Shown one piece after another: positions 9,289-41,888 of a DNA stretch of 64,000 nucleotides. A program made the translations under genes and the position numbers. Each line of letters begins with the position of its first letter. The first letter of the stretch is position 1. Under the pieces are notes generated by a model. It did no database searches. It had not been told where the DNA came from and saw nothing but the letters and a program-made list of their open reading frames with translations. The DNA is from Parasphingopyxis lamellibrachiae (GTDB taxonomy: Bacteria > Pseudomonadota > Alphaproteobacteria > Sphingomonadales > Sphingomonadaceae), in assembly GCF_003385775.1 (NCBI RefSeq), contig NZ_QRDP01000004.1, forward strand, positions 1,349,763 to 1,413,762, given 5' to 3'.

Positions 9289-9660
9289 TCAGCGTCTGGT
9301 GCGCACCATGGTTGCCGATGCCGTCGCCAGCAATTTCCCAGAACTGTTTTCCAGTTCGGCTTCGACAAACACGAACCGCTTGCTGCACCGTATGATCGAG
9401 GCGCCCGCGACAATCCGGCCTTCCGCACAAGGCCGCAGGAAGCTCGTCCGCAAGTCCACGGTCTGCAAATATTCGTCCGCATCGATCCGGGTGCGTGCGG
9501 CGCGGGCCATAACAGTGTCCGCCAGCGCCAGATAGACGCCGCCATGCACCTGTCCCAGATCATGCATATGGCGGTCGTCGACATCCAGTTCGACTGTGAA
9601 CCGCTCGTCGGACAGGCCGACAATGTTCAGCCCGAGCAGCGCGTTGAAACCGCTGGTCAC
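9289..9660 (-). CDS. PaaI-like hotdog thioesterase
   Basis: This 123-residue single-domain hotdog-fold protein carries the motif DLGQVHGGVYLALADTVM, where the HGG and Asp region binds and hydrolyses the acyl-CoA thioester in PaaI/YdiI-type enzymes. It lies 7 bp downstream of the acyl-CoA dehydrogenase gene in the same direction, so the two form an operon. A role in releasing CoA from dead-end or aromatic acyl-CoA intermediates is inferred from family and context. The exact substrate is unknown. Confidence 0.85.
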   Translation of the reverse strand: MTSGFNALLGLNIVGLSDERFTVELDVDDRHMHDLGQVHGGVYLALADTVMARAARTRIDADEYLQTVDLRTSFLRPCAEGRIVAGASIIRCSKRFVFVEAELENSSGKLLATASATMVRTRR

Positions 9661-9667
9661 AAACGGC

Positions 9668-10831
9668 CTAGCGCGGAAGTTTCAGCAGATTGGCGATATT
9701 GTTCCGCTGGATTGCCGACGACCCGCCCAAGATGGGCATGACGAGAACATCGCGCACGTAGCGCTGCATGTCGAAATCGCGAACATAGCCATAAGCGCCC
9801 ATGATCTGCTGACAGGTCAGCACGATATCGCGCGCCGTGTCGCAGACGAACAGCTTGGCCATCGATGTGTCTGCCGCGGCGGGTTGATTGGCATCGATCA
9901 ACGCAGCGGCATTGTACGTCATGAGGCGACAGGCTTCGAACTTTGTCTTCACATCGGCGAGCATGTGGCGGACCGATTGGATCGTACAGATCGGTTTGCC
10001 GAACTGAACGCGCTCCTGCGCATAGTTCCAGGCGTCATTCACGGCTCCGCGCGCAATGCCGAGCGCCATGGCCGCCACTTCAATCTTCTCGATATCCAGC
10101 CCCGGGCCGACAAGTTTGGACCAACCCTGACCGAGCCCTTCCTCGCCGCCGACGACATTGGAAACCGGCACACGAACGTCATCGAAACTGATATCAAACG
10201 TTCCGCCACCTTTCAGGCCCATCGTGTCCTGCGCCGTCATCTCAATTCCCTCGGAATCGGGCGGGATCAAAACGAGCGACAGGTTTCTGTACTTTTCTTC
10301 CACCGGGCCGGTGCGGACCAGGGCGTAAATATATTCGGAGATCTTCGCGCCTGAACAGAATCGCTTATTGCCATTGATGACCAGCTCGTCGCCTTCGCGC
10401 ACGGCCGTTGTCCGAACGCTCGCCAGATCGGCTCCGACATCCGGTTCGCTGAAACCATAGGCGACCATCAGCCCTTCGGACGCGACCCTTGGCAGCAATG
10501 TCCGGCGCTGCTCTTCGCTCGCGACTTCGCTGATATTAAGGCCGGCATAGCAGGTTGATTGGATGTAAGCGCAGCCAACCGCCATGCTGCGCGAGCATAA
10601 TTCCTCAATGACCATGATCGTCGCGGTAATGTCCCGCCCGCTGCCGCCATATTCCTCGGCAACCGTAAGACCCGTCAGGCCAAGCTCGACAAGCTTGTCA
10701 TGCACGTCGCGCGGGAAGACGTTCTCCTTGTCCCATTTCTGGGCCAGCTCGCGCGGCATTTCCTTGTCGATGAAACGGCGCATGGTGTCGCGCAGCATCA
10801 CAATGTGGTCGGCTTCTCCGGCGGCGTTCAT
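9668..10831 (-). CDS. Acyl-CoA dehydrogenase with isovaleryl-CoA dehydrogenase-like catalytic Glu position
   Basis: This is an FAD-dependent acyl-CoA dehydrogenase of 387 residues, full length for the family. The FAD and substrate motifs YGFSEPDVGADLASVRT and ERVQFGKPI are intact. The usual C-terminal catalytic Glu motif (YEGT) reads ILGGSSAIQR, so that Glu is absent. A Glu in GPGLDIEKIEVAAMALG sits where isovaleryl-CoA dehydrogenases place theirs, so a branched substrate is plausible. The gene is first in a two-gene operon with the thioesterase. Its 5' region is shared with the divergent Rieske oxygenase gene and contains two copies of the cluster's direct-repeat motif. Confidence 0.92.
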   Translation of the reverse strand: MNAAGEADHIVMLRDTMRRFIDKEMPRELAQKWDKENVFPRDVHDKLVELGLTGLTVAEEYGGSGRDITATIMVIEELCSRSMAVGCAYIQSTCYAGLNISEVASEEQRRTLLPRVASEGLMVAYGFSEPDVGADLASVRTTAVREGDELVINGNKRFCSGAKISEYIYALVRTGPVEEKYRNLSLVLIPPDSEGIEMTAQDTMGLKGGGTFDISFDDVRVPVSNVVGGEEGLGQGWSKLVGPGLDIEKIEVAAMALGIARGAVNDAWNYAQERVQFGKPICTIQSVRHMLADVKTKFEACRLMTYNAAALIDANQPAAADTSMAKLFVCDTARDIVLTCQQIMGAYGYVRDFDMQRYVRDVLVMPILGGSSAIQRNNIANLLKLPR

Positions 10832-10889
10832 GGCATGCCCTTTCGCAAATGGCGGTGATCGAGAGGGGCCAATCGCTAGGACGCCTGCA

Positions 10890-10906
10890 CCTCAGTTCAA
10901 ACTCGC
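10890..10906 (-). promoter_or_regulatory. Direct-repeat motif copy, facing the acyl-CoA dehydrogenase gene
   Basis: Read on the minus strand the site is GCGAGT-TTGAA-CTGAGG, two hexamers 11 bp apart. It points toward the gene starting at 10831, about 60 bp away. It matches the pattern GYGAGY-N5-SYGAGS found in the other cluster gaps. Confidence 0.45.
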
Positions 10907-10933
10907 AATTGGCGTAGATTGGCCATCTCCATC

Positions 10934-10950
10934 GCGAGTAAAATGTGAGC
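10934..10950 (+). promoter_or_regulatory. Direct-repeat motif copy, facing the Rieske oxygenase gene
   Basis: The sequence GCGAGT-AAAAT-GTGAGC consists of two hexamers 11 bp apart and lies 38 bp before ATG 10989. It is nearly identical to the site at 23342-23358 (GCGAGT-TTAAT-GTGAGC). It is a candidate binding site for a shared regulator. Confidence 0.55.
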
Positions 10951-10988
10951 AGGCCAGCGGATAGTCTCGCCGGAAAAGCGAGGACAAG

Positions 10989-12056: not shown

Positions 12057-12084
12057 CCGCGCTCATACCGCCAGCGACTTCGAT

Positions 12085-12101
12085 GCGAGTTCAAGCTGAG
12101 C
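12085..12101 (+). promoter_or_regulatory. Direct-repeat motif copy upstream of the HMGS-like/DUF35 gene
   Basis: The sequence is GCGAGT-TCAAG-CTGAGC, two hexamers 11 bp apart, oriented toward the TTG start at 12197. It resembles the site at 10890-10906 more than the consensus and is therefore of lower confidence. Confidence 0.4.
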
Positions 12102-12196
12102 CGGGCTCGGCTTAGCGAGATCGGCATTCGCCAGGGGGCGGGGCCGCACGCGGATGCTGCGCCCGGCCCGGGGCCGACTTGTCACAGGAGACTCTA

Positions 12197-14867: not shown

Positions 14868-14904
14868 ACGCGCCCTTTTCCCAATCATAGAAGCGAGAAA
14901 TTGC

Positions 14905-15678: not shown

Positions 15679-15739
15679 GGCGCGCTTCCATAGCGGGACC
15701 GGGAGACCGCCAGCTGGCCGTCCGGCCCGGAGGCCAGAA

Positions 15740-15756
15740 GTGAGCGCGATGCGAGG
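15740..15756 (+). promoter_or_regulatory. Direct-repeat motif copy upstream of the paired acyl-CoA dehydrogenase genes
   Basis: The sequence GTGAGC-GCGAT-GCGAGG consists of two hexamers 11 bp apart within the 184 bp gap before ATG 15863. It is oriented toward that gene and is part of the cluster-wide motif set. Confidence 0.42.
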
Positions 15757-15862
15757 TGCTGCTGATTGGGTCCTCCGATAGTCTTTGAGACCGAATAGTT
15801 CAGTTGGAAGAGACCCAGTTGGGCTCAGGTCCGGTCACGCATTTGTACGGGGAAACGCCAGT

Positions 15863-18039: not shown

Positions 18040-18851
18040 GCCCAGCGCGCGATCTTCCACAATGCACCGACAGCGATCTCAGTCTGACCGACGGTGTCGC
18101 CCTGTTGCGTTTCTGCCGCGACGATGTCCGCAACGCCCTGACCGGAACAGCTCTGATTGGCGATATCGTCAACGTCTGCAACTGGGCGAATGAAGACGAG
18201 CGGGTCGGGGCGCTGATCCTCAATGGCAACGGCAGAGCGTTTTCCGCGGGTGGGAATATCAAGGACATGGCCTCGAAATCGGGCATGTTCGGCGGCGAAC
18301 CCATGGCGGTTCAGGACGCCTATCGGCGCGGTATCCAAAAGATGAGCCTCGCCGTTTACCGTACTGAAATACCCGTGATCGCGGCTGTTAACGGCGCAGC
18401 GATCGGAGCCGGGCTCGACCTTGCCTGCATGTGCGACATCCGTTTGGGTTCGCGCCGGGCCAAGGTCGCCGAATCCTTCGTCACGCTCGGTCTGGTACCC
18501 GGCGATGGCGGGGCCTGGTTCCTGCCGCGCGTGGTCGGCACGCAACGCGCTGCAGAGATGACCTTTTCCGGGCGCCTGGTCGAAGCCGACGAAGCGCTTG
18601 AAATCGGGCTGTTCCTCGAACTGTGCGAACCCGATGCCCTACTCGATCGCGCCCTCGTGCTCGCCGCCGGATTTGCCGGTCAGCCCCGACGGGCGATCCG
18701 GCTCGCAAAAAGGCTGCTCGCCATGGGACAACGGATGCCGCTCGACGATTTTCTCGATCATTGCGCCGGGCTGCAGGCCCTCGCCCATCACGGCACCGAG
18801 CATGACGCGGCCGTTGCAGCGGCCATCAGCAAAATCACCTCCAAAGCCTAA
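18036..18851 (+). CDS. Enoyl-CoA hydratase/isomerase (crotonase family)
   Basis: This is a crotonase-fold protein of 271 residues. The oxyanion-hole motifs FSAGGNIKDM and NGAAIGAGLDLACMCD are conserved, and AESFVTLGLVPGDGG carries the Glu that serves as one catalytic base in the family. It overlaps the dehydrogenase upstream (ATGA) and the P450 downstream, so it follows the dehydrogenase pair both in genome order and probably in reaction order, hydrating the enoyl-CoA they produce. Confidence 0.9.
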   Translation: MSPARDLPQCTDSDLSLTDGVALLRFCRDDVRNALTGTALIGDIVNVCNWANEDERVGALILNGNGRAFSAGGNIKDMASKSGMFGGEPMAVQDAYRRGIQKMSLAVYRTEIPVIAAVNGAAIGAGLDLACMCDIRLGSRRAKVAESFVTLGLVPGDGGAWFLPRVVGTQRAAEMTFSGRLVEADEALEIGLFLELCEPDALLDRALVLAAGFAGQPRRAIRLAKRLLAMGQRMPLDDFLDHCAGLQALAHHGTEHDAAVAAAISKITSKA

Positions 18852-18868
18852 TGAAAGGTTCGGAATCA

Positions 18869-20053
18869 ATGACCCTTCGATACTCACCCTATGATGAAAA
18901 CCTGTGGTCCAACCCTTGGCCGATGTACAAGCGCATGCAGGACGAAGCCCCGGCCTATTATATCGAAGATCTCGATTGCTGGGCTTTATCGCGCTTCGAA
19001 GATGTCTGGCAGGCCAGCATGGATCGCAAGAATTTCACGGCGACCCATGGCACCTCTCCAGATGCCCTGTTTCTGGCGAGCGAACCGCCGCCCAATGTTT
19101 TTCTGTTCATGGATCCGCCGGAACATTCCAAACATCGCGGCCTGATCGGGAAATCCTATCGGAAGGACAGGGTTGCCGTGGTCGAAGACCAGGTCCGCAC
19201 GGTTGTCCGCAAGCATCTGAAGCCGATGCTCGAACAGGGCGAACTGGATGTCTATGCCTTGGGCAGCCGCACCGTGCTCGAAATGATCGCCTCTTTTACC
19301 GGCCTGCAGCTGGAAGAGGTGCAGCATATTCGCAGCTTGGTGGATCGCTTTTTCAAGCGTGAATCCGGCGTGCAGGGAACGACCGAAGCCGGCGCGAAAG
19401 CCTTTGTCGAAGCCCATGAATATATCTACGGACTGATCGATAGATACCGCAAACAGCCTCTAGCGGAGCAGAGCCATATTTCCACCTGGCTCAACGCTGA
19501 AGTCGATGGCCAGCGGCTGTCGGACGAACAGATTTTCTACAGCATTTTCGCGATGGTGATTACCGGGTCAGACACCGTACCCCTGACGACGGCAGGCAGC
19601 ATCTACTATCTCAACAAGCATCCGGACCAGCTGGCGCTTGTCCGCGATGACATCTCTCTCGTTGCCAACGCCTTTGAGGAAGCGGCTCGCTACGATCAGC
19701 CGACCAACCTGCTCGGTCGGCGCATAGCCCAGGACACCGAACTGCACGGACAGGAGCTACGCGCCGGACAGTCCGTCCTGTTCCTCTATGCAGCGGCATG
19801 CCGGGACAAGCGCGAATTCGATGCTCCCGACCGGTTTGACATCAAGCGGCGCCAGCGGCGTAATCTGTCTTTCGGCACCGGTCTGCATTTCTGCCTCGGC
19901 CAGCATCTGGCGCGCCTGGAAGGCCGCGTACTCCTTGAAGAACTGATCGGTTCGATACCCGATTTCGAGATCGAACAGGCCGGGTGCAAGCGTATCGTTG
20001 GCGAGTTTCTGCAAGGCTATTCCGCCATGCCCATCCGGTTTCGCCCGCAATAG
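18869..20053 (+). CDS. Cytochrome P450
   Basis: This soluble bacterial P450 has 394 residues from ATG 18869 (MTLRYSPYDE), which has AAAGG 9 bp upstream. An in-frame ATG at 18851 that touches the hydratase stop would add six residues. The heme-binding motif FGTGLHFCLGQHLAR contains the thiolate Cys342. The ExxR motif lies in FEEAARYD and the oxygen-activation helix reads TGSDT. It needs ferredoxin and reductase partners, which are not encoded nearby. Lying within the acyl-CoA genes, it probably hydroxylates the substrate skeleton or side chain. The CYP family cannot be assigned by eye. Confidence 0.93.
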   Translation: MTLRYSPYDENLWSNPWPMYKRMQDEAPAYYIEDLDCWALSRFEDVWQASMDRKNFTATHGTSPDALFLASEPPPNVFLFMDPPEHSKHRGLIGKSYRKDRVAVVEDQVRTVVRKHLKPMLEQGELDVYALGSRTVLEMIASFTGLQLEEVQHIRSLVDRFFKRESGVQGTTEAGAKAFVEAHEYIYGLIDRYRKQPLAEQSHISTWLNAEVDGQRLSDEQIFYSIFAMVITGSDTVPLTTAGSIYYLNKHPDQLALVRDDISLVANAFEEAARYDQPTNLLGRRIAQDTELHGQELRAGQSVLFLYAAACRDKREFDAPDRFDIKRRQRRNLSFGTGLHFCLGQHLARLEGRVLLEELIGSIPDFEIEQAGCKRIVGEFLQGYSAMPIRFRPQ

Positions 20054-20076
20054 CTGCGATCCTGGCATAGCATCCG

Positions 20077-21329: not shown

Positions 21330-22520
21330 TCAATAGGTGAGCGGTAGCTCCAACGCCCGCCGCGCGATGATGTTCTTCTGGATCTCCGAAGTGCCGGCGC
21401 CGATCGTGTCGAGCGCCGTTGCCCGGTAGGACCATTCCCATTTGCCCGCCGCCGGCGCTTCGGCATCGTCCTTGTGCAGCAAGCCTTCGGTGCCAAGACT
21501 GTCGAGCGCGAAATCCGCAAGCCTTTGATGCAGGCTCGTGCTGTAAAGCTTGCACATAGCCGCCTCGATGCTCGGGACCCGGCCCTGCGACGACGCGTAG
21601 ATCACCCGCCTCTGCAGCATCTTGGACATTTCGACTTCGGCCGTGAGCTTCGCCAGCCGCCGCCGGACATGCGGTTCGGCAATAACCGGCGCCCCATCTC
21701 GCTGGGCAGTTCGCAACAGGTCGCGCAGCGCGAAGAGCTTCTCTTCAAGCGGGCTGAACGTGTAGAAAGTGAAGCGCTCGTAATCGAGAGCTTCGCAAAT
21801 ATAGGTCCATCCCCGGTTCAACTCACCAACCAGATAGGCGTCTTCGACAAAGACATCGTCGATAAACACCTGGTTGGTGACATGTTCGCCCATGGTTTCG
21901 ATGGGATGGATCGTTATCCCGGGTTGATCCATCGGGACGAGGAAAACGCTGATCCCCTTGTGCTTGGGGGCGTCGAAATCGGTCCGGGCGGCAAGCCAGT
22001 ACCAGTCGGCGAAGTGAGCCGAGGTCGTGAACATTTTCTGGCCATTGATCCGCCAGCCGCCGGCTTCCCGCTCTGCGCGCAGCTTGAGTGCCGCAAGATC
22101 CGAGCCGGCATGCGGTTCGGAATAGCCAAGGGCGAACTCGACCTCGGCACGCAAAATTTTCGGCAGAAATTCCTGCTTCAGCTTGTCAGAGCCATGGCGA
22201 ATGATCGTCTGTCCGACACAACCCACGCCCTTGCCGATCAGCGGCGCGCCGACCCGCGATAGTTCCTCATTCAGCAGATACTCGTAGATGCCCGGGCGGC
22301 CCTGCCCCCCATATTCCTGCGGCCATGACATGCCGAGATAGCCCCGTTTCGCAAGCTCTTTATTGAATGCCTTGCGCGCTGGCGTGTCGGCCAGGATCGA
22401 ATCCGATTCGCGCTCGGGACACATGATATCGGCCGCATCGGGCCATTGCCGAACCTCATCGAGAAAAGCCCTGACCTCAGCTACAAATTCAAGCTGATCG
22501 GCATCGAAATCAAAATCCAC
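21330..22520 (-). CDS. Acyl-CoA dehydrogenase
   Basis: This full-length acyl-CoA dehydrogenase has 396 residues, resembling the FadE17/FadE29 type seen in mycobacterial steroid clusters. The motifs WPQEYGGQGRPGIYEYLLNEEL, YSEPHAGSDLAALK and TIGAGTSEIQKNIIARRALELP are clear. It lies 18 bp after the tetR gene on the same strand and is probably co-transcribed with it from the 23160-23378 region. The substrate is unknown, but it is most likely a bulky acyl-CoA of this cluster. Confidence 0.92.
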   Translation of the reverse strand: MDFDFDADQLEFVAEVRAFLDEVRQWPDAADIMCPERESDSILADTPARKAFNKELAKRGYLGMSWPQEYGGQGRPGIYEYLLNEELSRVGAPLIGKGVGCVGQTIIRHGSDKLKQEFLPKILRAEVEFALGYSEPHAGSDLAALKLRAEREAGGWRINGQKMFTTSAHFADWYWLAARTDFDAPKHKGISVFLVPMDQPGITIHPIETMGEHVTNQVFIDDVFVEDAYLVGELNRGWTYICEALDYERFTFYTFSPLEEKLFALRDLLRTAQRDGAPVIAEPHVRRRLAKLTAEVEMSKMLQRRVIYASSQGRVPSIEAAMCKLYSTSLHQRLADFALDSLGTEGLLHKDDAEAPAAGKWEWSYRATALDTIGAGTSEIQKNIIARRALELPLTY

Positions 22521-22538: not shown

Positions 22539-23159
22539 TCATTTGGTAAGATATTTCACAAATGCATCGGACAGCTGCTCAATGAGCTGCTCGTCGGAAA
22601 CGACCGGGGCATTATTGTCCAGATAGGCATCGATACTGCCGATTATGATATGTTCGGCAACGAACATCGCGACTTCCAGGTCTGCGACCATAATCTCGGT
22701 GCGATGCTGCTGATAATAGGCACGTATCGTATTGTAGAGGAATTTCTCTGTCGTCACGTTGCGCGACAGGCGGCCAAGTTTCGGAACCTCGCGCGGCAGC
22801 CGCAGAAAGATGAAGCTGTACCGCTTGCGCGTTTCGAGGATCGATCGGATAATTTCCCGCGCCGATTCATCAAGCGGCTTCGTCATATTCTCGATCAGGC
22901 AGTCACGCAGCACCTCGGTCGCGTTCATCACAGCGCTTTCGACGAGCGCCGCGGCAATTGCTTCCTTGCTTGCAAAATACTGGTAGAGCGAACCGATGCT
23001 CACCCCGGCGACTTCCGCGATATTATTGGTCGTTGCCGCGTCATACCCGCTTTTGAGGATGATCGATTCGGCAGCCTTCAGTATGCAATCGACGGTGAAT
23101 TGCGCTCGCTGCTGCTGCGGTACTTTACGCGGGGCAAGTTGGGTTTCCAGTGCACTCAT
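22539..23159 (-). CDS. TetR-family transcriptional regulator
   Basis: This 206-residue regulator has the typical N-terminal helix-turn-helix: ILKAAESIILKSGYDAATTNNIAEVAGVSIGSLYQYF. The C-terminal ligand domain is variable and contains a hydrophobic stretch, as expected for lipid- or acyl-CoA-binding members. It is the only transcription factor inside the catabolic cluster. An inverted repeat and one copy of the cluster direct repeat lie upstream of it, so autoregulation is likely. Its ligand is unknown. Confidence 0.93.
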   Translation of the reverse strand: MSALETQLAPRKVPQQQRAQFTVDCILKAAESIILKSGYDAATTNNIAEVAGVSIGSLYQYFASKEAIAAALVESAVMNATEVLRDCLIENMTKPLDESAREIIRSILETRKRYSFIFLRLPREVPKLGRLSRNVTTEKFLYNTIRAYYQQHRTEIMVADLEVAMFVAEHIIIGSIDAYLDNNAPVVSDEQLIEQLSDAFVKYLTK

Positions 23160-23311
23160 ATACGGTCTCTCCTCCGCCGCTGACCGGCGTATCGGTGAAG
23201 CGTTTAGCCGCCGAACCCCAATCGGGTTTGCAACCCGGTCAGTATCGGCTGAGACTGATTGGCTTCGTCCCGGTTCTTCGCGTGGTCCGTTTTCGGCATC
23301 GCGAAATCCAA

Positions 23312-23337
23312 TTTCAGTGCTATCACAAAAACTGAAA
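23312..23337. promoter_or_regulatory. Inverted repeat upstream of tetR, candidate TetR operator
   Basis: Arms TTTCAGT (23312-23318) and ACTGAAA (23331-23337) are perfect inverted repeats separated by 12 bp. The site lies about 155 bp upstream of the tetR start and directly next to the direct-repeat motif. Symmetric sites of this type are usual for TetR dimers. Binding is inferred. Confidence 0.4.
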
Positions 23338-23341
23338 CTTT

Positions 23342-23358
23342 GCTCACATTAAACTCGC
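23342..23358 (-). promoter_or_regulatory. Direct-repeat motif copy upstream of tetR
   Basis: On the minus strand the site reads GCGAGT-TTAAT-GTGAGC and faces tetR. With one flanking base on each side it agrees with the site at 10934-10950 in all but two positions, and it lies in the only large gap of the leftward gene run between 21330 and 34682. Confidence 0.55.
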
Positions 23359-23378
23359 GTTCTGAAATGCGGCAAATA

Positions 23379-26605: not shown

Positions 26606-29600
26606 TTAGGCAGGCACGGTTTCGCGCCGGGCCTCCTCCAGTTCGATGATCAATTCCCGCTTCGCATCCCGCATCCTGGCGATATGCTCATCCTTCACGG
26701 TGTCGTATCCGCGAACCTGTTCGGGCCATTCGGCAATGCGCACGGCCACATCGTGATTCGCCGGATCGAGACGCCCGGTTAGCATCGCGATATCGCTCTC
26801 ATATTCGGCGATAAGACCCCGCTCGAGACGGCGGTGCGCCGCATAGCCGAAGATATCGAAAGGCGTACCGCGCAACCGACGAAATTTCGCGAGCAGGCCC
26901 ATTGCCGGCCGTATCCAGCCACCGAAGCTGCGCTTGCGGTAGCGCCCGGTCTGCGGATCCCGTCGCTGGAGGATCGGCGGCGCCATATGATATTCGATGC
27001 GGAAATCGCCCTCGAATTCTTCTTCCAGCGTACGCCGGAACTCTGCGCCGCTCAGCAGGCGTGCGACCTCATATTCATCCTTATAGGCGAGCAACTTGAA
27101 GTAATATTGCGCAACGGCCCGGGCGAGATCGTCGCGGACATCGTCCAGTTGCCGCTCAGCGCCGCGCGCCAGATCGACTAACGCGCGGTAGCGATCCGCA
27201 TAGGCGCGATCCTGATAACGTTCGAGTTCGGCTGCGTTGCGATCGACAATCGCGTTGAGATCCTCGACCTCGTCTGCTTTTTCGGGTGCAAGCACGCCAG
27301 TTAGCTTTGCCGGATCATGCGCTGCGATCCTGCCCCAGGCGATGGCCGCGCGGTTCATTTCGACAGCCGTCCCGTTCAGCTCCACCGCGCGATCAAGCGC
27401 AGCGAGGGAAATCGGCAACCAGCCACGCTGCGCGGCATAACCGACCAGCATCAGATTGGCGCCCACCTCATTGCCCATCAGCGCATAGGCGAGCTGGCTA
27501 GCCTCGATAAATTCGACTGTATCACCGCACTGGGAGATCAGCGATTTCATCTTGCCGGCGCTGAGATCGAGATCAGGATTGCTCGCAAAATCAGATGTTG
27601 GCGCAACACGGCTGTTGACGATGGCGCGGGTCATTTCCGAGCGCATTCGGCCGAGCACGTCCGCGCTCGCCGTGACGACGATATCGCTTCCGATCACCAG
27701 ATCGGCGGCGGATATGCGGGTGGCCTGAAGCGCTTCCGGCGAGACGGCAACGCGCACATGGCTGGTTACCGGGCCGTTGCGCTGGGCAAGGCCCGTAACA
27801 TCGAGCACCGAACAGCCTTTCCCCTCCAGATGAGCTGCCATGCCCAGTATCGCGCCCAGCGTGACCACACCGGAGCCGCCGATCCCGGTAACAAGCAGGC
27901 TGAACGGTTTGGCAACCGAGGCGGGCTCGGGAGCGGGCACATCGGCAAGGATATTCCGATAGCTGTGGCCACCGCCGCCGCGCTTTCTTGGCCGTCCGCC
28001 GTGGACGGTCACGAAACTCGGGCAATAGCCTTCGAGACAGGAAAAATCCTTGTTGCAGGCGGACTGATTGATCCGCCGCTTACGCCCGAATTCGGTTTCA
28101 ACCGGTTCGATCGCAATGCAGTTGGACTGAACCGAACAATCGCCGCAGCCTTCGCAGATCCGGGGATTGATAAACGGCCGCCGGTCAGGATCTTCAGCCT
28201 TGCCGCGCTTTCGGCGGCGGCGCAGTTCGGTTGCGCAATTCTGGTCATAGATGATCGCCGTTGCACCCGGAATGTCCCGCATGCGACGCTGGACCGCATC
28301 CAGTTCGCGGCGGTGATGCACTGTTGTACCCGGCGCGAAATCGGCGTCCGCGCCATAATTTTCAGGATGATCGGTAACGACCGCAATCGCCCCTATACCC
28401 TCGGCCTGCACCTGTTTGGAAAGCTGGTCGACCCGCATCTTGCCCGCGATCGGCTGCCCGCCGGTCATCGCGATCGCATCGTTGACGAGGATTTTATATG
28501 TGATGTTGACGCCTGCGGCGACGGCCGCCCTGATCGCCAGCAACCCCGAATGATAGTAGGTCCCGTCGCCAAGATTCTGAAAGATGTGCGGTGTTTCGGT
28601 AAAGGGCGCGATGCCGATCCAGGGAGCCCCCTCGCCGCCCATCTGGAACAGGGTCGGCGTGTTCCGTTCCGGCAGGAAGGTTGCCATGCCATGGCAGCCG
28701 ATGCCGCCAAAGGCGACACTTCCCTCCGGCAATTTGGTCGACTGGTTGTGCGGACAACCGGCACAGAAGCTTGGCATTCTCGCAAGTGCCGCCGTCCCGG
28801 AAACACTATTGTCCCCGTCATTGCCGAGTGCGGCCATACAGCCCAGAGCATCGCCCTCACCAACCAGCATCCTGAGCCGGTCTGCTATCACCTGCGCAAT
28901 CGTGGCCGGCGCAAGCTCTCCTTCGGCCGAGAAGAGCGGCGCGCCCGTCGCGTCCTGCTTGCCGAGCAGCCCGGGATGGTCGGCCATGTTGACGAGCAGC
29001 CGTGCAATCTGGTCTTCGATAATCGGGCGCTTTTCCTCGACGACGAGAATTTCGCGATTGCCTTCGATGAATGCGGATATACCCTCGGGCTCGAGCGGCC
29101 AGGGCATCGCAACCTTGTAGAGCGAAACGCCGAGTGCCTCGCTCCGCGCGGCATCGAGGCCGAGATCGTCCAGCGCCTGCATCACATCGAGAAAGCTCTT
29201 CCCGGTCGTGATGATCGCCAGATTCTTGCGGGAAGAAGAGAGTATCGTGCGATTCAGATTATTCGCGCGAACATAGGCGAGAACCGCCGGAATGCGTTCC
29301 TGATACTGCCGTTTCTCGGCAACCAGCGCCGGCACCATCCAGCGCGCGCTGCGCTTACCATCGGTGTTTTCGTCTTCCGGCAGGGCAATCTCGATCCGGT
29401 TCGGGTCGATATCGACCGAAGCGCTACTCTCGATGGTGTCGGTCACGCATTTCATGCCTACCCAGCAGCCCGAATGGCGCGACATGGCAAAACCATGCAA
29501 GCCGAAATCGATATAATCCTGTACCGATGACGGGTTGAAAAAAGGCATGCCGAAATGGATAAAGGCGTGATCGCTCTGATGCGCGATGGTCGATGATTTC

Positions 29601-30070
29601 GCACCGTGATCGTCGCCGGCCAGAACCAGCACGCCACCATGGGGAGACGCCCCCGAATAGCTGCCATGTTTCAGCGCATCGCCGGACCGGTCGACGCCGG
29701 GCCCCTTGCCATACCAGATGCCGAACACGCCATCATAGCGCGCATTGCCGAACAGGCCGACCTGCTGCGATCCCCAGACCGCCGTTGCGCCGAGGTCCTC
29801 ATTGATACCCGGCTCGAAATGGATGTGATTTTCCGTGAGCAGGTCCGGCACCTGGTTGAGGGCAATATCATAGCCCCCGAGCGGCGAACCGGTATATCCG
29901 GAAATAAATCCCGCTGTGTTGAGACCGGCCGCGACATCGCGCTGCCGCTGCATCATCGGCAGGCGGACCAGCGCCTGCGACCCGGACAGGAAAACCCGCC
30001 CTTCGGTGCGCGAATAGCGATCTTCCAGCCGATATTCGGTGTCGACGGTGATTGGACCTGTATCCGGCAT
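26606..30070 (-). CDS. Fused indolepyruvate-type 2-oxoacid:ferredoxin oxidoreductase
   Basis: This 1,154-residue protein combines the alpha and beta (IorA/IorB-like) parts in one chain. In order it has a pyrimidine-binding domain (GFISGYTGSPLGGYD), a TPP-binding domain (GDGTYYHSGLLA), a ferredoxin-like Cys-rich segment (CEGCGDCSVQSNC, later CNKDFSCLEGYCP) and a C-terminal gamma-type domain (GIGGSGVVTLGAIL). The family decarboxylates 2-oxoacids to acyl-CoA and reduces ferredoxin. It lies 5 bp after the extradiol dioxygenase gene. It may convert a 2-oxoacid from ring or side-chain cleavage to a CoA ester, and the reduced ferredoxin could serve the oxygenases. Both ideas are inferences. Confidence 0.93.
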   Translation of the reverse strand: MPDTGPITVDTEYRLEDRYSRTEGRVFLSGSQALVRLPMMQRQRDVAAGLNTAGFISGYTGSPLGGYDIALNQVPDLLTENHIHFEPGINEDLGATAVWGSQQVGLFGNARYDGVFGIWYGKGPGVDRSGDALKHGSYSGASPHGGVLVLAGDDHGAKSSTIAHQSDHAFIHFGMPFFNPSSVQDYIDFGLHGFAMSRHSGCWVGMKCVTDTIESSASVDIDPNRIEIALPEDENTDGKRSARWMVPALVAEKRQYQERIPAVLAYVRANNLNRTILSSSRKNLAIITTGKSFLDVMQALDDLGLDAARSEALGVSLYKVAMPWPLEPEGISAFIEGNREILVVEEKRPIIEDQIARLLVNMADHPGLLGKQDATGAPLFSAEGELAPATIAQVIADRLRMLVGEGDALGCMAALGNDGDNSVSGTAALARMPSFCAGCPHNQSTKLPEGSVAFGGIGCHGMATFLPERNTPTLFQMGGEGAPWIGIAPFTETPHIFQNLGDGTYYHSGLLAIRAAVAAGVNITYKILVNDAIAMTGGQPIAGKMRVDQLSKQVQAEGIGAIAVVTDHPENYGADADFAPGTTVHHRRELDAVQRRMRDIPGATAIIYDQNCATELRRRRKRGKAEDPDRRPFINPRICEGCGDCSVQSNCIAIEPVETEFGRKRRINQSACNKDFSCLEGYCPSFVTVHGGRPRKRGGGGHSYRNILADVPAPEPASVAKPFSLLVTGIGGSGVVTLGAILGMAAHLEGKGCSVLDVTGLAQRNGPVTSHVRVAVSPEALQATRISAADLVIGSDIVVTASADVLGRMRSEMTRAIVNSRVAPTSDFASNPDLDLSAGKMKSLISQCGDTVEFIEASQLAYALMGNEVGANLMLVGYAAQRGWLPISLAALDRAVELNGTAVEMNRAAIAWGRIAAHDPAKLTGVLAPEKADEVEDLNAIVDRNAAELERYQDRAYADRYRALVDLARGAERQLDDVRDDLARAVAQYYFKLLAYKDEYEVARLLSGAEFRRTLEEEFEGDFRIEYHMAPPILQRRDPQTGRYRKRSFGGWIRPAMGLLAKFRRLRGTPFDIFGYAAHRRLERGLIAEYESDIAMLTGRLDPANHDVAVRIAEWPEQVRGYDTVKDEHIARMRDAKRELIIELEEARRETVPA

Positions 30071-30075
30071 GGCGA

Positions 30076-31526: not shown

Positions 31527-31532
31527 GCCCGG

Positions 31533-34682: not shown

Positions 34683-34746
34683 GATGTACGCCGCCCTGTG
34701 CCATTGCTGCAGTCAGGGTTGTGCGCGGCCCCGCCCTTCCATCTCA

Positions 34747-34763
34747 ACTCTGTTCGCGCTCAC
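34747..34763 (-). promoter_or_regulatory. Direct-repeat motif copy upstream of the leftward catabolic operon
   Basis: On the minus strand it reads GTGAGC-GCGAA-CAGAGT, preceded by AAAT as in other copies. The first hexamer is perfect and the second is degenerate. It faces the dehydrogenase gene starting at 34682 and lies in the 95 bp gap that splits the leftward gene run. Confidence 0.4.
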
Positions 34764-34777
34764 ATTTGGAGGGCTCC

Positions 34778-35757: not shown

Positions 35758-35861
35758 TTCGATATCCTCGCTGCGCGCTTCGAGAACGCGCATTTCATGC
35801 CAGCCATCTAGAACCGACATCCACCGTGCCGCAATCGCCCGAGGCACAACGCGACCGGACT

Positions 35862-35878
35862 GCGAGCGATATGCGAGC
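35862..35878 (+). promoter_or_regulatory. Direct-repeat motif copy upstream of the acyl-CoA ligase operon
   Basis: The sequence GCGAGC-GATAT-GCGAGC is a perfect hexamer repeat 11 bp apart, 65 bp before the TTG start at 35943. It is the cleanest repeat of the set and lies in the divergent gap between the dehydratase and ligase genes. Confidence 0.55.
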
Positions 35879-35942
35879 AGCGAAAGCCCTTCATATGCGA
35901 CTAGTTCTGCACCCTGAACAGAAAGCGGATAGGGAGGCATAA

Positions 35943-37556
35943 TTGGGCTTGGCGCAGTCTTTGTGGATCGGCAGTGCCGATGGTCCTGAACGCGACAATA
36001 TCGCCATTGGCGCCGCCGTCTCCCGGTCTGCTGCAGCATGGCCGGATGCCGAGGCCGTCGTCTTTGCCTGCCAGCCCGAAATCGAAGAAGTCCGCTGGAC
36101 GTTCCGCGATCTCGATGCCCAATCCAGCAGACTGGCGCACGCGCTCATCGGGGCGGGATACAAGCCGGGCGAGCGAATCGCGATCTGGGCTCCCAACCAT
36201 CCCAACTGGATCCTGCTCGAATATGCGATTGCCAAGGCCGGGATGGTGATCGTCGCCATCAACCCGCTCTACCGGGCGGCCGAGTTGCAATATGCGCTCG
36301 CCGTTTCGGATGTCGCCGCGATATTCCATGCCGACACAGTGGGCGGCGATCCGATGCGGGCGACCATCGATGCCGCCGCTTCCGGTACGCCGCTCCTGCG
36401 CGGCATCTATTCGCTCTCCGGCGACCTCGACGACCTGCTTGCGAACGCACCGGATTCGGGCGCATTGCCGCAAGTCGATCCGGCCGACCTTTTCATGATC
36501 CAATATACATCGGGCACGACGGGAGTGCCCAAAGCGGCCTGGCTGCCGCACGGATCGATCGCGACAATCTCCGCACGGACCTACGAGCGATGGGGCTTTG
36601 GCGCCGGCGACCGGGTCTGCCATGGCTTTCCGATGTTCCATGTCGGCGGTTCCGGCAATTCCACGCCCGGATCGCTGATCGTTGGCGCAACGACACTGCC
36701 CATCCATATCTTTCGCGCCGGCGAAGCGCTCGACATTCTGGAGCAGGAACGCTGTACCGGCTTTATCGGGGTGCCCTCCATGCTCACCGCCATCATGGAG
36801 GAAGGCACTCTGCAGTCGCGCGACCTTTCGGCTCTGAAACGCATCGTCGTTGGCGGCGCGTCCGTTCCCTCTCCTTTCCTGAAGCGATGCGAAGACATGT
36901 TCGGCGTCGAAATGCTCAATGGCTATGGCCAGACCGAAAGCTGCGGGGTCAGCGCCAGCGTTCGGCCCGGCGACGATGCCGACAAGAAGATTGCGACGAG
37001 CGGCGTCGCCCTTCCCGGGGTTAGTCTTAAGGTGGTCGACAGCGCCGGGCGCGTTCAGCCCTGCGGCGTCCCGGGGGAATTATGCGCAGACGGCCCTGGC
37101 AAGATGTTGCGCTATGGAGATTCCGAGGCAACCCGCCAGGCCTTCGATGCCGATGGCTGGCTGAAGACTGGCGACATCGCGACGATGGATGCCGATGGCT
37201 ATGTCGCGATCGTCGGGCGGCTCAAGGAAATGATCATTCGTGGCGGAGAGAATCTCTATCCGGCGGAGATCGAAGCCTATCTGATCGAGCATCCCGATAT
37301 CGCCGAAGCGGCCGTGATTGGTCTTCCGGATGGAAAATATGGCGAAGAAATGTGCGCCGTGCTGCGGCCCTCGCATCCTGATCATGCCGATGCCGACACG
37401 ATCCGCGCCTGGTGTCGGGACCGTGTCTCGCGCTGGAAGGTGCCCCGCTACATCGCCTTTGTAGATACCCTGCCCGCAACCCCGTCGGGCAAAATCAAGA
37501 AGCATGAGCTCATTCCCGAAATGCAGGCCCATTTCGACCTTTCCCCTGAACAATAA
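35943..37556 (+). CDS. Fatty-acid-type AMP-forming acyl-CoA ligase
   Basis: This ligase of 537 residues activates a carboxylic acid to its CoA thioester through an acyl-adenylate. The P-loop motif YTSGTTGVPKAAWLPH, the GYGQTES motif, the hinge GRLKEMIIRGGENLYPAEIE and the catalytic Lys in PSGKIKK are all intact. The start is TTG 35943, supported by AGGGAGG 6 bp upstream. No in-frame ATG is nearby. It is the first gene of the ligase-crotonase-SDR operon and probably performs the entry activation for the cluster. Confidence 0.93.
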   Translation: MGLAQSLWIGSADGPERDNIAIGAAVSRSAAAWPDAEAVVFACQPEIEEVRWTFRDLDAQSSRLAHALIGAGYKPGERIAIWAPNHPNWILLEYAIAKAGMVIVAINPLYRAAELQYALAVSDVAAIFHADTVGGDPMRATIDAAASGTPLLRGIYSLSGDLDDLLANAPDSGALPQVDPADLFMIQYTSGTTGVPKAAWLPHGSIATISARTYERWGFGAGDRVCHGFPMFHVGGSGNSTPGSLIVGATTLPIHIFRAGEALDILEQERCTGFIGVPSMLTAIMEEGTLQSRDLSALKRIVVGGASVPSPFLKRCEDMFGVEMLNGYGQTESCGVSASVRPGDDADKKIATSGVALPGVSLKVVDSAGRVQPCGVPGELCADGPGKMLRYGDSEATRQAFDADGWLKTGDIATMDADGYVAIVGRLKEMIIRGGENLYPAEIEAYLIEHPDIAEAAVIGLPDGKYGEEMCAVLRPSHPDHADADTIRAWCRDRVSRWKVPRYIAFVDTLPATPSGKIKKHELIPEMQAHFDLSPEQ

Positions 37557-37570
37557 TCGATTGGAGACCC

Positions 37571-38368: not shown

Positions 38369-38371
38369 ACG

Positions 38372-39148: not shown

Positions 39149-39533
39149 ATTTCTGGCGCCAGACCCTGGTGCGCTTCTGCTTTTCGAGGGCTCCTTTCGA
39201 GCCAATCTATAACCGTACCGGAACCAAGACGAGTAGGATGTGAGCAAAGCCTCACTTACCCCAATCCTCACAAAGAGGGGTTCAAAGGCTCCCAGGGATG
39301 AAGGCGCATAGGATCCGATCAAAAAGATCGACCGCCGGGAAGGGGAAGCTCGCAGAAATGATCCACATGCACGCTGCGCATGCAGGGTAGGCGCCGTTAC
39401 GGCATCCGCCATTCAGCCGCGCATATGCATTCAACCGGGGCGCGCCCACAATGTCGTCAGGCCTTGGGGGACGCCCGCCCACACCGAATCAACCACGAGA
39501 CAATCGCCATGAAATCTGTAGGAGAGTTGGGAC
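39149..39533. other. 385 bp intergenic region before the TonB receptor gene
   Basis: No credible coding frame is present. It contains one direct-repeat copy at 39229-39245 and, at its end, AGGAGAG as ribosome site for the TonB receptor. No terminator hairpin with a T-run was seen after the SDR gene, so read-through into the receptor is possible. Confidence 0.6.
39229..39245 (+). promoter_or_regulatory. Direct-repeat motif copy upstream of the TonB receptor
   Basis: The sequence ACGAGT-AGGAT-GTGAGC consists of two hexamers 11 bp apart, about 290 bp before ATG 39534 and facing it. The trailing AAAG is also seen after the site at 23342-23358. Confidence 0.5.
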
Positions 39534-41888
39534 ATGCGTAGGAACATCATAAACACATATCTGGTCGGCACCGCGTTGTGCATTTTGCCTTTCACGGCAG
39601 CACAGGGGCAGACAACATCGGAACCGGCGGCCGAAGAGAGCGGCGTTTCCGACGGCGTAATCGTCGTGACCGCACAAAAGCGTTCGGAGCGGCTCACTGA
39701 CGTTCCGATGTCCATCACCGCCATAACCGGCGACGACCTCGTGCGGAGCGGCATCAGCGAACCTTCGCAGCTTGGTCAGGCCGTTCCCGGCTTCAGCGCC
39801 CAGCAAAGCGCTTTCGGTACGCCGATCCTCTCGATCCGCGGCATCGGCTATAACGACAATTCCGTGACGGCCGGCTCGACCGTAACCGCCTATATCGACC
39901 AGGTCGCCCTTCCCTATTCGGTGATGGCGCGCGGTGCGATCATGGATCTCCAGCGGGTCGAAGTGCTCAAGGGACCCCAGGGCACATTATTCGGAATGAA
40001 CTCGACCGGCGGTGCCATCAATTTCGTCGCAGCCCGACCCACGAGCAGTTTCGAAGCCGGTGTCGACCTGAGCGTCGGCCGGTTCAACGAAGTGGATTTT
40101 TCGGCCTTTATCAGCGGCCCGCTTACCGACACGGTGACGGCCCGCGCAGCGATCCAGGTCGAACGCTCCAGCGGCTGGCAGTATAGCACGACCCGCCCGA
40201 ATGACCGGCTGGGCGACAAGGATTTCATCAACGGACGCCTGCTGATCGACTGGCAGGCAAGCGACCGGCTCTCCTTCCAGCTCGGCCTCAGCGCCTGGCA
40301 TGACGGATCGGAAAACCAGGCGGCGCAGTTTGTGCAATTCTCGCCGGCCGTTCCCGTCACCCCGCTGACCCAATTCGTCGCGGATGCGATGAATGCGTCT
40401 CCGGTGGCCGGCGACAATCCGCGTGAAGCCGATTGGGATCCCAATACCGATCTTACGCGCGGCGATGATTTCCGGCAGGTTTCCCTTCGTGCAGACTGGG
40501 AACTGACGGACGATATCACCTTGACGTCGATTACGGCCTATTCCGATTTCCGCGGAGATTCGCCGATCGATATCGACGGCACCGCCTTCAACGCTTTCCT
40601 GGTGCAGGAGCATGACACCAAATTGACAACCTTCTCCCAGGAACTGCGCTTTGCCGGCACGTCCGGCCCGGTCGACTGGATGATCGGTGGTAATTACCAG
40701 GACGAGATTGCCAATGAATCGACGCGGACAAACGCGCAGGGCACGAACAGCCAGATCGGGCCGTTCATATTCACGCCGCTCGGGCAGATAGCCAATCAGT
40801 CCATCGACACGATTTCTGTTTTCGGCAGTCTCGATTTCCACGTAACCGACCAGCTGACCTTGCAGGGTTCTGCGCGCTATGCATCGCAGAATCGGGACTT
40901 TAGCGGCTGTATCCGGGATGCCGGTGCCGGCGCAGTAGGTGTCAGCGCCGCCCAGGCCTTCAGCTTCCTGGCAACGATATTCTCGGGAACGCCAACGACC
41001 ATTCCGGCAGGCGGCTGCGTCACACTGGACGCAACCACCTTTGCCCCCGGCCTTGCCAATTCAAGCCTCGATGAAGACAATCTCTCATGGCGGCTCGGTG
41101 CCGACTATCGTTTCAATGACAATGCGATGATCTATGCCAATGTCACCCGCGGCTATAAATCCGGCAGTTATGCTCTCGTACCAGGCATTCTCTCCAGCCA
41201 GTTCACCCCGGTAACGCAGGAATCCGTGCTCGCCTTCGAGGCCGGCACCCGCCTGTCGACCATCGACAACCGGTTCAGCATCGAATTCGCGGCCTTTTAC
41301 AATGACTATGAGGACAAGCAGCTCAAAGGCATCGTGCTGACGCCGGTGTTCGGTCCCCTGCCCCAGCTGGTTAATATACCGGAATCCGAAGTCTATGGTT
41401 TCGAGGTCAATCTGGCCGCCCGCCCGGTTGAAGGTCTGCGGCTCAGCACGGGCATCACCTATGTTGCTTCCGAAGTGCTGACGGACCCAGTTGCTCCCGC
41501 TGAGCCCAGAGGCCCGTTTGGCGGGCTGACCAGCTATGTCGGGGAATCTTTTCCGAACACCCCGGAATGGCAGATCGTGAGCGATGCCGAATATGAATTC
41601 CCGATCGGTGCAGGCGGGCTTCGCGGCTTTGTCGGCGGATCGCTCACCTATCGCAGCAGCAGTCCGGCGGCATTCGGCAACAATCCGGTGTTCCAGCTGC
41701 CTTCCTCCACGTTGGTGGATCTGCGGGCCGGCATAGAAGCCGCAGACGGCCATTGGACGGCGCAGGTCTGGGGCCGCAACGTCACAAACGAGCATTATTG
41801 GACCAATGTGACCCATCTCACCGACTATGTTTCACGTCTGACCGGCGCGCCGGCAACCTACGGCATATCCGTCGGCTACCGCTACTAG
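39534..41888 (+). CDS. TonB-dependent outer-membrane receptor
   Basis: This 784-residue receptor has a signal peptide (about residues 1-26), a TonB-box/plug start (DGVIVVTAQKRSERLTDVPMSITAI), plug motifs (VEVLKGPQGTLFGMNSTGGAINFV) and a C-terminal beta-barrel ending in an aromatic residue (GISVGYRY). Such receptors import large or hydrophobic substrates through the outer membrane. In sphingomonads one is often linked to each catabolic cluster. Its position after the ligase operon and the direct repeat upstream suggest that it imports the cluster's substrate. The ligand is not known. Confidence 0.94.
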   Translation: MRRNIINTYLVGTALCILPFTAAQGQTTSEPAAEESGVSDGVIVVTAQKRSERLTDVPMSITAITGDDLVRSGISEPSQLGQAVPGFSAQQSAFGTPILSIRGIGYNDNSVTAGSTVTAYIDQVALPYSVMARGAIMDLQRVEVLKGPQGTLFGMNSTGGAINFVAARPTSSFEAGVDLSVGRFNEVDFSAFISGPLTDTVTARAAIQVERSSGWQYSTTRPNDRLGDKDFINGRLLIDWQASDRLSFQLGLSAWHDGSENQAAQFVQFSPAVPVTPLTQFVADAMNASPVAGDNPREADWDPNTDLTRGDDFRQVSLRADWELTDDITLTSITAYSDFRGDSPIDIDGTAFNAFLVQEHDTKLTTFSQELRFAGTSGPVDWMIGGNYQDEIANESTRTNAQGTNSQIGPFIFTPLGQIANQSIDTISVFGSLDFHVTDQLTLQGSARYASQNRDFSGCIRDAGAGAVGVSAAQAFSFLATIFSGTPTTIPAGGCVTLDATTFAPGLANSSLDEDNLSWRLGADYRFNDNAMIYANVTRGYKSGSYALVPGILSSQFTPVTQESVLAFEAGTRLSTIDNRFSIEFAAFYNDYEDKQLKGIVLTPVFGPLPQLVNIPESEVYGFEVNLAARPVEGLRLSTGITYVASEVLTDPVAPAEPRGPFGGLTSYVGESFPNTPEWQIVSDAEYEFPIGAGGLRGFVGGSLTYRSSSPAAFGNNPVFQLPSSTLVDLRAGIEAADGHWTAQVWGRNVTNEHYWTNVTHLTDYVSRLTGAPATYGISVGYRY

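What the first reader, a model, noticed from the sequence alone, without database searches (positions are those of the whole stretch)
9289..39534. One direct-repeat motif in every sizeable gap of the catabolic cluster, always facing the downstream gene
Eight sites with the pattern GYGAGY-N5-SYGAGS (hexamers 11 bp apart) were found at 10890-10906(-), 10934-10950(+), 12085-12101(+), 15740-15756(+), 23342-23358(-), 34747-34763(-), 35862-35878(+) and 39229-39245(+). They fall in all seven intergenic gaps of about 90 bp or more between 9289 and 39534. Each copy is oriented toward the gene it precedes, including the divergent pair at 10832-10988. The other gaps of the window that I checked lack clear copies. 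Four copies share ATGTGAGC. Direct repeats about one helical turn apart suit an asymmetric activator better than the cluster's TetR. The shared sites would define a single regulon covering uptake, activation and degradation.
Basis: partly seen in the sequence, partly recalled or inferred. Interest (0 to 1): 0.8.

Follow-up and report, generated by a model that had tools for sequence, protein, structure and literature searches.

The report
Repeated DNA switch of steroid-type cluster
A short DNA signal made of two same-way copies about one helix turn apart sits in front of most operons of a bacterial gene cluster that looks like one for breaking down estrogen-type steroids, is kept in distant bacteria that have the cluster, and is probably the landing site of the cluster's own repressor-type protein, although such proteins normally bind mirror-image sites.

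Summary
Six of the eight sites match GYGAGY-N5-SYGAGS exactly (0.67 expected); the others miss by 1-2 positions. A weight matrix built only from 25 sites of other genera returns exactly these eight as its top eight in the 64 kb. An unbiased dyad scan of the eight oriented promoter regions finds GAG-N8-GAG the most shared element (8 of 8; no dyad reached 8 in any of 60 shuffled sets). All seven gaps of about 90 bp or more hold a copy facing a downstream gene. Genome-wide, the five 0-1-mismatch matches to the extended motif all lie in the cluster. The refined motif is a direct repeat of RATGYGAGY with an 11-bp period; about a third of sites have TAG at a fixed place downstream. The regulon reading is strongly supported, including conservation at the same promoters in Gammaproteobacteria. 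The preference for an activator over the cluster TetR is not: OmpR, LuxR and AraC genes are not consistently linked in five genomes, whereas loci with a TetR of 50% identity or more carry the motif in 15 of 16 cases and loci without it in 0 of 3. Best explanation: repression by this TetR on an unusual direct-repeat operator. There are no binding data; regulator and sign are inferred.

The parts
10890..10906 (-). direct-repeat site GCGAGTTTGAACTGAGG facing acyl-CoA dehydrogenase 9668-10831(-)
   Evidence: site in 6 of 6 orthologous promoters examined
10934..10950 (+). direct-repeat site GCGAGTAAAATGTGAGC facing the Rieske oxygenase 10989-12056(+)
   Evidence: orthologous promoters of this gene were not tested
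12074..12101 (+). three units at 11-bp steps (GCGACT, GCGAGT, CTGAGC); core site 12085-12101, facing the HMG-CoA-synthase-like gene 12179-13675(+)
   Evidence: 5 of 7 orthologous promoters at 13 bits or more
15740..15756 (+). direct-repeat site GTGAGCGCGATGCGAGG facing the genes 15785-21306(+) (acyl-CoA dehydrogenases, hydratase, P450, CoA-transferase)
   Evidence: 2 of 2 orthologous promoters
23342..23358 (-). strongest site, AAC-GCGAGTTTAATGTGAGC-A, facing the TetR gene 22539-23159(-)
   Evidence: 12 of 15 TetR promoters examined
34747..34763 (-). direct-repeat site GTGAGCGCGAACAGAGT facing the gene row led by acyl-CoA dehydrogenase 33543-34682(-)
   Evidence: 8 of 13 orthologous promoters at 13 bits or more
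35851..35878 (+). three units at 11-bp steps (GCGACC, GCGAGC, GCGAGC); core site 35862-35878, facing the CoA ligase 35943-37556(+)
   Evidence: 10 of 14 orthologous promoters at 13 bits or more, 9 of 13 without one counted twice
39229..39245 (+). direct-repeat site ACGAGTAGGATGTGAGC facing the TonB-dependent receptor 39534-41888(+)
   Evidence: 4 of 5 orthologous promoters; the fifth, L001, has its copy at 1878, about 296 bp from the gene and so at the edge of the stretch searched
22539..23159 (-). TetR-family regulator, the only regulator recognised among the cluster ORFs scanned; proposed to bind the repeats
   Evidence: Pfam TetR_N 4.8e-14; helix-turn-helix nearly invariant; co-occurrence
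21330..22520 (-). acyl-CoA dehydrogenase 18 bp downstream of the TetR gene, probably the same operon
   Evidence: same order in most loci that hold both genes
26606..30070 (-). indolepyruvate ferredoxin oxidoreductase-family protein, EdcC-like by family
   Evidence: NCBIfam NF009589 1593 bits
30076..31107 (-). BphC/HsaC-type extradiol dioxygenase, called EdcB-like in this report
   Evidence: Pfam; NCBIfam matches below their cut-offs
18851..20053 (+). cytochrome P450, EdcA-like by family
   Evidence: Pfam p450 5.9e-22
35943..37556 (+). AMP-binding CoA ligase
   Evidence: Pfam
39534..41888 (+). TonB-dependent receptor, EdcT-like by family
   Evidence: Pfam

Best explanation
The repeats are the operators of one pathway-specific regulon that covers an extended edc-type (estrogen 4,5-seco-like) gene cluster. 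Each operator is two same-way copies of RATGYGAGY, 11 bp apart (one helical turn). In about a third of sites a -10-like TAG begins 12-13 positions after the last base of the repeat, which would place the repeat over the -35 region. The protein that reads them is most likely the TetR encoded in the cluster (22539-23159), which also has the window's best site in front of its own gene. Without substrate it would sit on the promoters and on its own; the steroid or an early intermediate would release it. Shown: the motif, its restriction (in strict form) to the cluster, its conservation at the same promoters, and the co-occurrence of TetR and motif. Inferred: that the TetR binds, that it represses, and what the ligand is.
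For: Window. Genome restriction. Conservation: upstream of seven operon-leading genes 47 of 62 stretches score 13 bits or more with the window-only matrix (46 of 61 without one gene counted twice), against 4 of 123 upstream of twelve genes taken as operon-internal. Over 40 aligned sites the flanks carry almost no information, the repeat up to 2.3 bits per column (sites chosen by matrix score). TetR: with the window-only matrix, loci with at least one site of 15 bits or more are 15 of 16 where the genome has a TetR of 50% identity or more (L014 misses), 1 of 2 at 47-48% (L019 yes, L015 no) and 0 of 3 where it is absent or only 30% (L017, L021, G247); the Markov expectation is 0-0.4 per locus (identities). 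Among 396 genomes of the same order the TetR (E up to 1e-35) is in 3, which are 3 of the 4 that hold the dioxygenase (E up to 1e-60). A second, paralogous cluster in the L008 genome keeps diverged TetRs (39-40%) and slightly altered repeats. The TetR recognition region is nearly invariant from Alpha- to Gammaproteobacteria. Precedent: EdcR, a TetR, represses the edc operons of Caenibius tardaugens (PMC8700777; abstract, section 3.1 and found passages).
Against: TetR proteins normally bind inverted repeats as symmetric dimers; 11-bp same-way repeats, and two places with three units in a row (12074-12101, 35851-35878), suit OmpR/PhoB-type binders better (recalled). In clusters with two adjacent TetR genes (L014, L016, L086) the TetR promoter itself has no site, and L014-L016 have at most one site of 14-15 bits or more. 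With the larger matrix L017, whose genome has no such TetR, shows one 17.2-bit hit, no worse than L014, L015 and L016. Inverted 6-mers with period 11 are over-represented in the seven gaps (z 3.44) and direct ones are not, though the inverted ones share no word. Exact 4-mers, inverted or direct, are shared by at most 2 of 7 gaps, so that test decides nothing. The predicted monomer is an ordinary TetR. TetR and operators may simply be inherited together.
Confidence: 0.6

Rival explanations
1. The repeats are bound by a head-to-tail activator (OmpR/PhoB-, LuxR- or AraC-type) encoded elsewhere in the genome; the TetR is co-regulated or has another site.
For: Same-way 11-bp repeats and three-unit arrays fit head-to-tail dimers (recalled); no clear separate -35 box was seen by eye. 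Genes of all three kinds exist in all 5 genomes examined.
Against: The strict motif is confined to the cluster, so the regulator should be dedicated. In the 5 genomes the only genes near the cluster are one OmpR-type gene about 2 kb beyond the TonB receptor in G399 and one AraC-type gene about 10 kb away in G397. A trans-acting partner would have to accompany the cluster across classes without being linked to it. Unlinked regulators were not compared across genomes.
Confidence: 0.23
2. The TetR binds as a normal symmetric dimer to GTGAG-N6-CTCAC, formed by the second repeat and an inverted third half-site 11 bp further on; the first GCGAG serves another protein or a second TetR dimer.
For: TCA starts at exactly +23 in 10 of 42 alphaproteobacterial and 10 of 21 gammaproteobacterial sites and rarely at neighbouring offsets. 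L018 has ATGTGAGCAATTTCTCACAT and the window's TonB-receptor site has GTGAGCAAAGCCTCAC. Inverted repeats of period 11 are over-represented in the gaps, though only that at 12095 overlaps a site.
Against: TCA at +23 is missing from 43 of 63 sites. The unselected window scan finds the direct pair GAG-N8-GAG in 8 of 8 promoter regions. The 63 sites were picked by a matrix that includes the first repeat, so its presence in them is no evidence.
Confidence: 0.13
3. The repeat is a core promoter element (an unusual -35 region or a special sigma factor site), not an operator.
For: Fixed distance to TAG in 20 of 63 sites.
Against: The strict form is found only in this cluster in the own genome and, in 398 genomes of the phylum, otherwise only once, inside an ORF; it has the form of a repeated word.
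Confidence: 0.03
4. Chance matches or codon-usage bias.
For: A test for 11-bp direct repeats of any sequence is not significant in the window; with 2 mismatches the motif is no commoner genome-wide than its reversed control.
Against: the sites are intergenic and lie at the same promoters in other genera and another class.
Confidence: 0.01

Closest known systems
EdcR regulon of Caenibius tardaugens NBRC 16725 (PMC8700777; abstract, section 3.1 and found passages read)
   Same: TetR gene inside an estrogen-degradation (edc) cluster with P450, 4,5-dioxygenase, indolepyruvate-ferredoxin-oxidoreductase-type enzyme and TonB receptor; several promoters under one regulator; autoregulation suggested.
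   Different: The proposed EdcR operator is a palindrome (TnnCnnTACnAnTnGTAnnGnnA) overlapping the -10; no match with up to 2 mismatches lies in any of the seven gaps here. Here the shared element is a direct repeat, placed over the -35 if the TAG is the -10. EdcR is described with TetR_C_11; the window TetR matches TetR_N and, below cut-off, TetR_C_15. Sequence identity to EdcR was not measured.
Mce3R of Mycobacterium tuberculosis (PMC11667970; abstract and found passages read; PDB 9b7y)
   Same: TetR-type repressor of genes that include cholesterol metabolism, with a non-palindromic operator and autoregulation; sequence match E 9e-9 to the window TetR, fourth in the list.
   Different: Mce3R is two different TetR units in one chain, giving two non-identical helix-turn-helix motifs on an asymmetric operator; the window TetR is a single unit of 206 residues. 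Some gammaproteobacterial clusters carry two adjacent TetR genes (L014, L016, L086), a loose parallel.
ArdK of plasmid R388 (PMC9723621; abstract, outline and introduction read)
   Same: A repressor with conserved direct repeats in five promoters; it binds them as a non-symmetric dimer by rotating one helix-turn-helix domain.
   Different: KorA family, plasmid functions; no homology was tested.
PhoB/CreB/CtrA-type 11-bp direct-repeat operators (recalled, no call)
   Same: Same-way half-sites 11 bp apart near the -35.
   Different: Bound by OmpR-family winged-helix proteins; none is consistently linked to this cluster.

Membership tests
EdcR-type regulon | TetR gene inside an edc-type cluster (P450, extradiol dioxygenase, IOR, TonB receptor) | tested here: met
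   by family; identity to the published Edc proteins was not measured
EdcR-type regulon | palindromic operator TnnCnnTACnAnTnGTAnnGnnA in the promoters | tested here: not met
   with up to 2 mismatches only positions 203 and 9223 of the window match, neither in a gap
EdcR-type regulon | repression relieved by estradiol or estrone | not testable with these tools
   needs reporter assays
TetR family (gene 22539-23159) | TetR_N helix-turn-helix and all-helical fold | tested here: met
   Pfam PF00440 4.8e-14; model pLDDT 86.6; the top Foldseek matches are TetR-type regulators
TetR family (gene 22539-23159) | inverted-repeat operator | tested here: inconclusive
   no exact inverted 4-mer pair shared by more than 2 of 7 gaps, but the same holds for direct pairs; inverted third half-site (TCA at +23) in 20 of 63 sites; surplus of unlike inverted repeats
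Mce3R-type double TetR | two TetR units in one chain | tested here: not met
   206 aa, one TetR_N stretch
KstR cholesterol regulator | NCBIfam NF033703 above its cut-off of 280 bits | tested here: not met
   30.6 bits
OmpR/PhoB direct-repeat regulon | Trans_reg_C regulator linked to the cluster | tested here: not met
   of 5 genomes, linked in G399 only; unlinked regulators not excluded
Estrogen 4,5-seco (edc/oec) cluster | substrate is an estrogen | not testable with these tools
   inferred from gene families only

The most novel reading that the evidence does not exclude
A single-unit TetR-family homodimer uses same-way 11-bp repeats, not a palindrome, as its regular operator (a broken-symmetry or chain-forming TetR), and this TetR-operator pair has been kept across Alpha- and Gammaproteobacteria as the switch of an estrogen-type catabolic regulon, with a duplicated and diverging copy in one genome.
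Probability: 0.35. Interest if true: 0.68.

Novelty: new variant of a known kind. Interest (0 to 1): 0.5.

Why it matters
It gives a short searchable signature that ties separate operons, and even separate contigs, to one steroid-type pathway in little-studied bacteria. It also offers an estrogen-sensor candidate with operators unlike those proposed for EdcR.

Tried and rejected
Test for 11-bp direct repeats of any sequence: not significant in the window, so the claim rests on the shared word. EdcR palindrome: absent from the gaps. CRP-like reading of the GTGA...TCAC elements in some relatives: the spacer there is 8, not the 6 recalled for CRP (read by eye). OmpR, LuxR and AraC candidates by linkage: not consistent (5 genomes, unlinked regulators not compared). 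Strict motif across the phylum: of 398 genomes only the own genome and G575 matched, the latter inside an ORF. Literature: I saw no paper that describes this motif; the searches were and 75 of an open-licence library (listings, and abstracts, sections or found passages of seven papers: PMC8700777, PMC12239570, PMC12882949, PMC9723621, PMC11667970, PMC10858194, PMC7793797), so subscription papers are not covered.

Dropped rows and choices: I left out L004 (near-copy of L005), L094 and L095 (same contig as L002) and L096 (same as L006), set identity cut-offs per gene myself, and counted L089 although it repeats L011 for one gene. The 40 sites of the refined matrix were picked by me from scans with the window matrix; one search is the check without the window, L001 and L002. 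One search uses the refined matrix, which was trained on many of the loci it scores, so I rest the TetR comparison (window-only matrix). The TetR presence search covered 22 of the 23 genomes with a dioxygenase homologue; that of L004 was not searched.
Full report
Observation. All eight sites are present as listed. The written pattern is met exactly by six (mean 0.67 in shuffles, none of 100 shuffles reached six); 34747 misses by two positions and 39229 by one. The seven gaps of about 90 bp or more between the ORFs I took as genes each hold at least one site, 28-288 bp upstream of a start and facing that gene.

More than chance. Three checks agree. First, a matrix built from 25 sites of other genera, with nothing from the window, L001 or L002, ranks exactly the eight sites first in the 64 kb; the next two hits are register-shifted neighbours of two of them, at 12071 and 35848. 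Second, a search over all trinucleotide pairs with spacers of 2-20 in the eight oriented promoter regions finds GAG-N8-GAG as the pair shared by most: 8 of 8, with at most 6 for any pair in 60 shuffled sets. The same call gives 7 of 7 in a Caulobacteraceae MAG and 10 of 13 in gammaproteobacterial promoters (there GAG-N7-TGA, overlapping it, has 12), but those regions were chosen around genes already seen to carry sites, so only the window set is unselected. Third, in the whole genome (2.95 Mb) the 17-mer has 22 matches, 6 in the cluster, and outside it the count (16) is close to that of the reversed control (13); all five matches with 0-1 mismatch to the extended motif lie in the cluster. Against: a test for 11-bp direct repeats of any sequence is not significant in the seven gaps (z 0.86), while inverted 6-mers with period 11 are over-represented (15 against 6.7, z 3.44). 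Those 15 have different sequences and only one overlaps a listed site, so they are no shared operator, but the result is not in my favour.

Refined motif. Forty aligned sites give AAT-GYGAGY-NNR-ATGTGAGY-W, two copies of RATGYGAGY 11 bp apart; the flanks carry almost no information. Two window sites have a further unit in register (12074-12101, 35851-35878). In 63 sites (42 from Alpha-, 21 from Gammaproteobacteria) TAG starts at +28 or +29 in 20, and TCA starts at +23 in 20. If TAG is part of the -10, the repeat covers the -35 region, which suits both a repressor and an activator that overlaps the -35.

The cluster. By Pfam and NCBIfam it encodes acyl-CoA dehydrogenases, hydratases, thiolases, SDRs, a P450, a Rieske oxygenase, an extradiol dioxygenase, an indolepyruvate ferredoxin oxidoreductase-family protein, a MaoC-like and a FAS1-dehydratase-like protein, a CoA ligase, a TonB receptor and one TetR; some short ORFs were not scanned. 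P450, dioxygenase, IOR, acyl-CoA dehydrogenase, two MaoC-type hydratases and TonB receptor are also named for the edc cluster of Novosphingobium (Caenibius) tardaugens (PMC7793797, found passages). The substrate is inferred only. A same-genus genome, G362, carries a contig of the same length (365,952 bases) as the Parasphingopyxis marina record of L002, so the window is probably a Parasphingopyxis.

Conservation. The dioxygenase as query gave 21 loci from named genomes and matched 4 of 396 genomes of the order, the own one included. With the window-only matrix, stretches of up to 300 bp upstream of seven operon-leading genes score 13 bits or more in 47 of 62 cases (46 of 61 without one counted twice), against 4 of 123 for twelve genes taken as internal. 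Those four are thiolase or dioxygenase genes in L009, L014 and L016. The 15 misses are: HMG-CoA-synthase-like gene in L015 (9.5 bits) and L016 (6.0); TetR in L014, L016 and L086 (1.6 to -1.3); leading acyl-CoA dehydrogenase in L006, L007 (11.8 each), L008 (8.8), L020 (2.3) and L086 (-1.3); ligase in L086 (10.7), L008 (10.2), L014 (3.6) and L009 (-1.5); TonB receptor in L001 (0.9; its copy lies about 296 bp upstream, at the edge of the stretch). In L011, L013 and L104 the divergent ligase promoter has sites of 13 bits or more facing both ways, while the window, L001-L003, L005 and L007 show only the ligase-facing one.

Who reads it. The TetR is the only regulator recognised among the cluster ORFs scanned. 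A TetR of this kind (E up to 1e-15) is in 12 of 13 genomes, the 13th being G575 with its chance match, and in 8 of 10, one of these (L021) at only 30% identity. With the window-only matrix, loci with at least one site of 15 bits or more are 15 of 16 where TetR identity is 50% or more, 1 of 2 at 47-48%, and 0 of 3 where it is absent or 30% (Markov expectation 0-0.4 per locus). With the refined matrix, trained on many of these loci, the edge is less clear: L014, L015, L016 and the TetR-less L017 each have one hit of 15-17 bits. In 396 genomes of the order the TetR occurs in 3, all of which hold the dioxygenase; the fourth dioxygenase genome, G247, has no such TetR and no site of 14 bits or more in the 40 kb examined. 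The genome of L008 has a second, paralogous cluster with TetR copies of 39-40% identity and repeats of slightly different sequence. The recognition region is nearly invariant. Trans_reg_C, GerE and HTH_18 genes are not consistently near the cluster in five genomes; exceptions are an OmpR-type gene about 2 kb beyond the TonB receptor in G399 and an AraC-type gene about 10 kb off in G397.

Why this is not settled. TetR-family proteins are classed as palindrome binders (PMC9723621, introduction, which also notes that some members bind direct repeats by an unknown mechanism), and three-unit arrays look like sites of chain-forming proteins. The predicted monomer is an ordinary TetR. Co-occurrence could reflect common inheritance of the whole cluster. 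I put the regulon itself at about 0.95, the TetR as its reader (direct repeat or other geometry) at about 0.7, the full best explanation at 0.60, and the direct-repeat homodimer reading at 0.35.

Comparison. EdcR (PMC8700777) is the nearest functional relative, but its palindrome is absent here. Mce3R (PMC11667970) shows that a TetR-type regulator of cholesterol genes can read a non-palindromic site, but by joining two different units. ArdK shows that a repressor dimer can read direct repeats. The window case is thus a new variant: the role of EdcR, with a different operator architecture.

Noticed in passing
L129, L130 (G400:C12:413000-450000): A second, paralogous copy of the catabolic cluster in the genome of L008 (Sphingomonas colocasiae record), with two diverged TetR genes and altered repeats.
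   Followed up: partly
L014:13346-14788, L016:13351-14793, L086:6215-7602: Two adjacent TetR paralogues in gammaproteobacterial versions of the cluster, reminiscent of an unfused Mce3R.
   Followed up: partly
window 23160-23378, 39149-39533 and other gaps: Inverted 6-mer repeats with period 11 are over-represented in the seven gaps (z 3.44), with unlike sequences; unexplained.
   Followed up: partly
window 7780-9285(+): Sulfatase gene directly beside the cluster, without a repeat of its own; possibly for sulfated steroids.
   Followed up: no
window 53-6258(+): Respiratory nitrate reductase genes by Pfam (molybdopterin, beta, delta and gamma subunits), followed by a PpiC-type peptidyl-prolyl isomerase gene at 6255-7082.
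   Followed up: no
window 42121-43596(+): 491-residue ORF right after the TonB receptor with no Pfam or NCBIfam match.
   Followed up: no
window 45300-46901(-): Wax ester synthase/diacylglycerol acyltransferase by Pfam.
   Followed up: no
L015: Record titled Klebsiella pneumoniae MAG whose locus has nearly the same layout as that of an uncultured gammaproteobacterium (L019); the title looks wrong.
   Followed up: no
L017:2712-2732(+): One repeat-like site (17.2 bits with the refined matrix, 13.1 with the window-only one) in a genome with a dioxygenase homologue but no TetR of this kind.
   Followed up: no
window 35800-35942: Only the ligase-facing site is present; L011, L013 and L104 have sites facing both ways in this divergent promoter.
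   Followed up: partly
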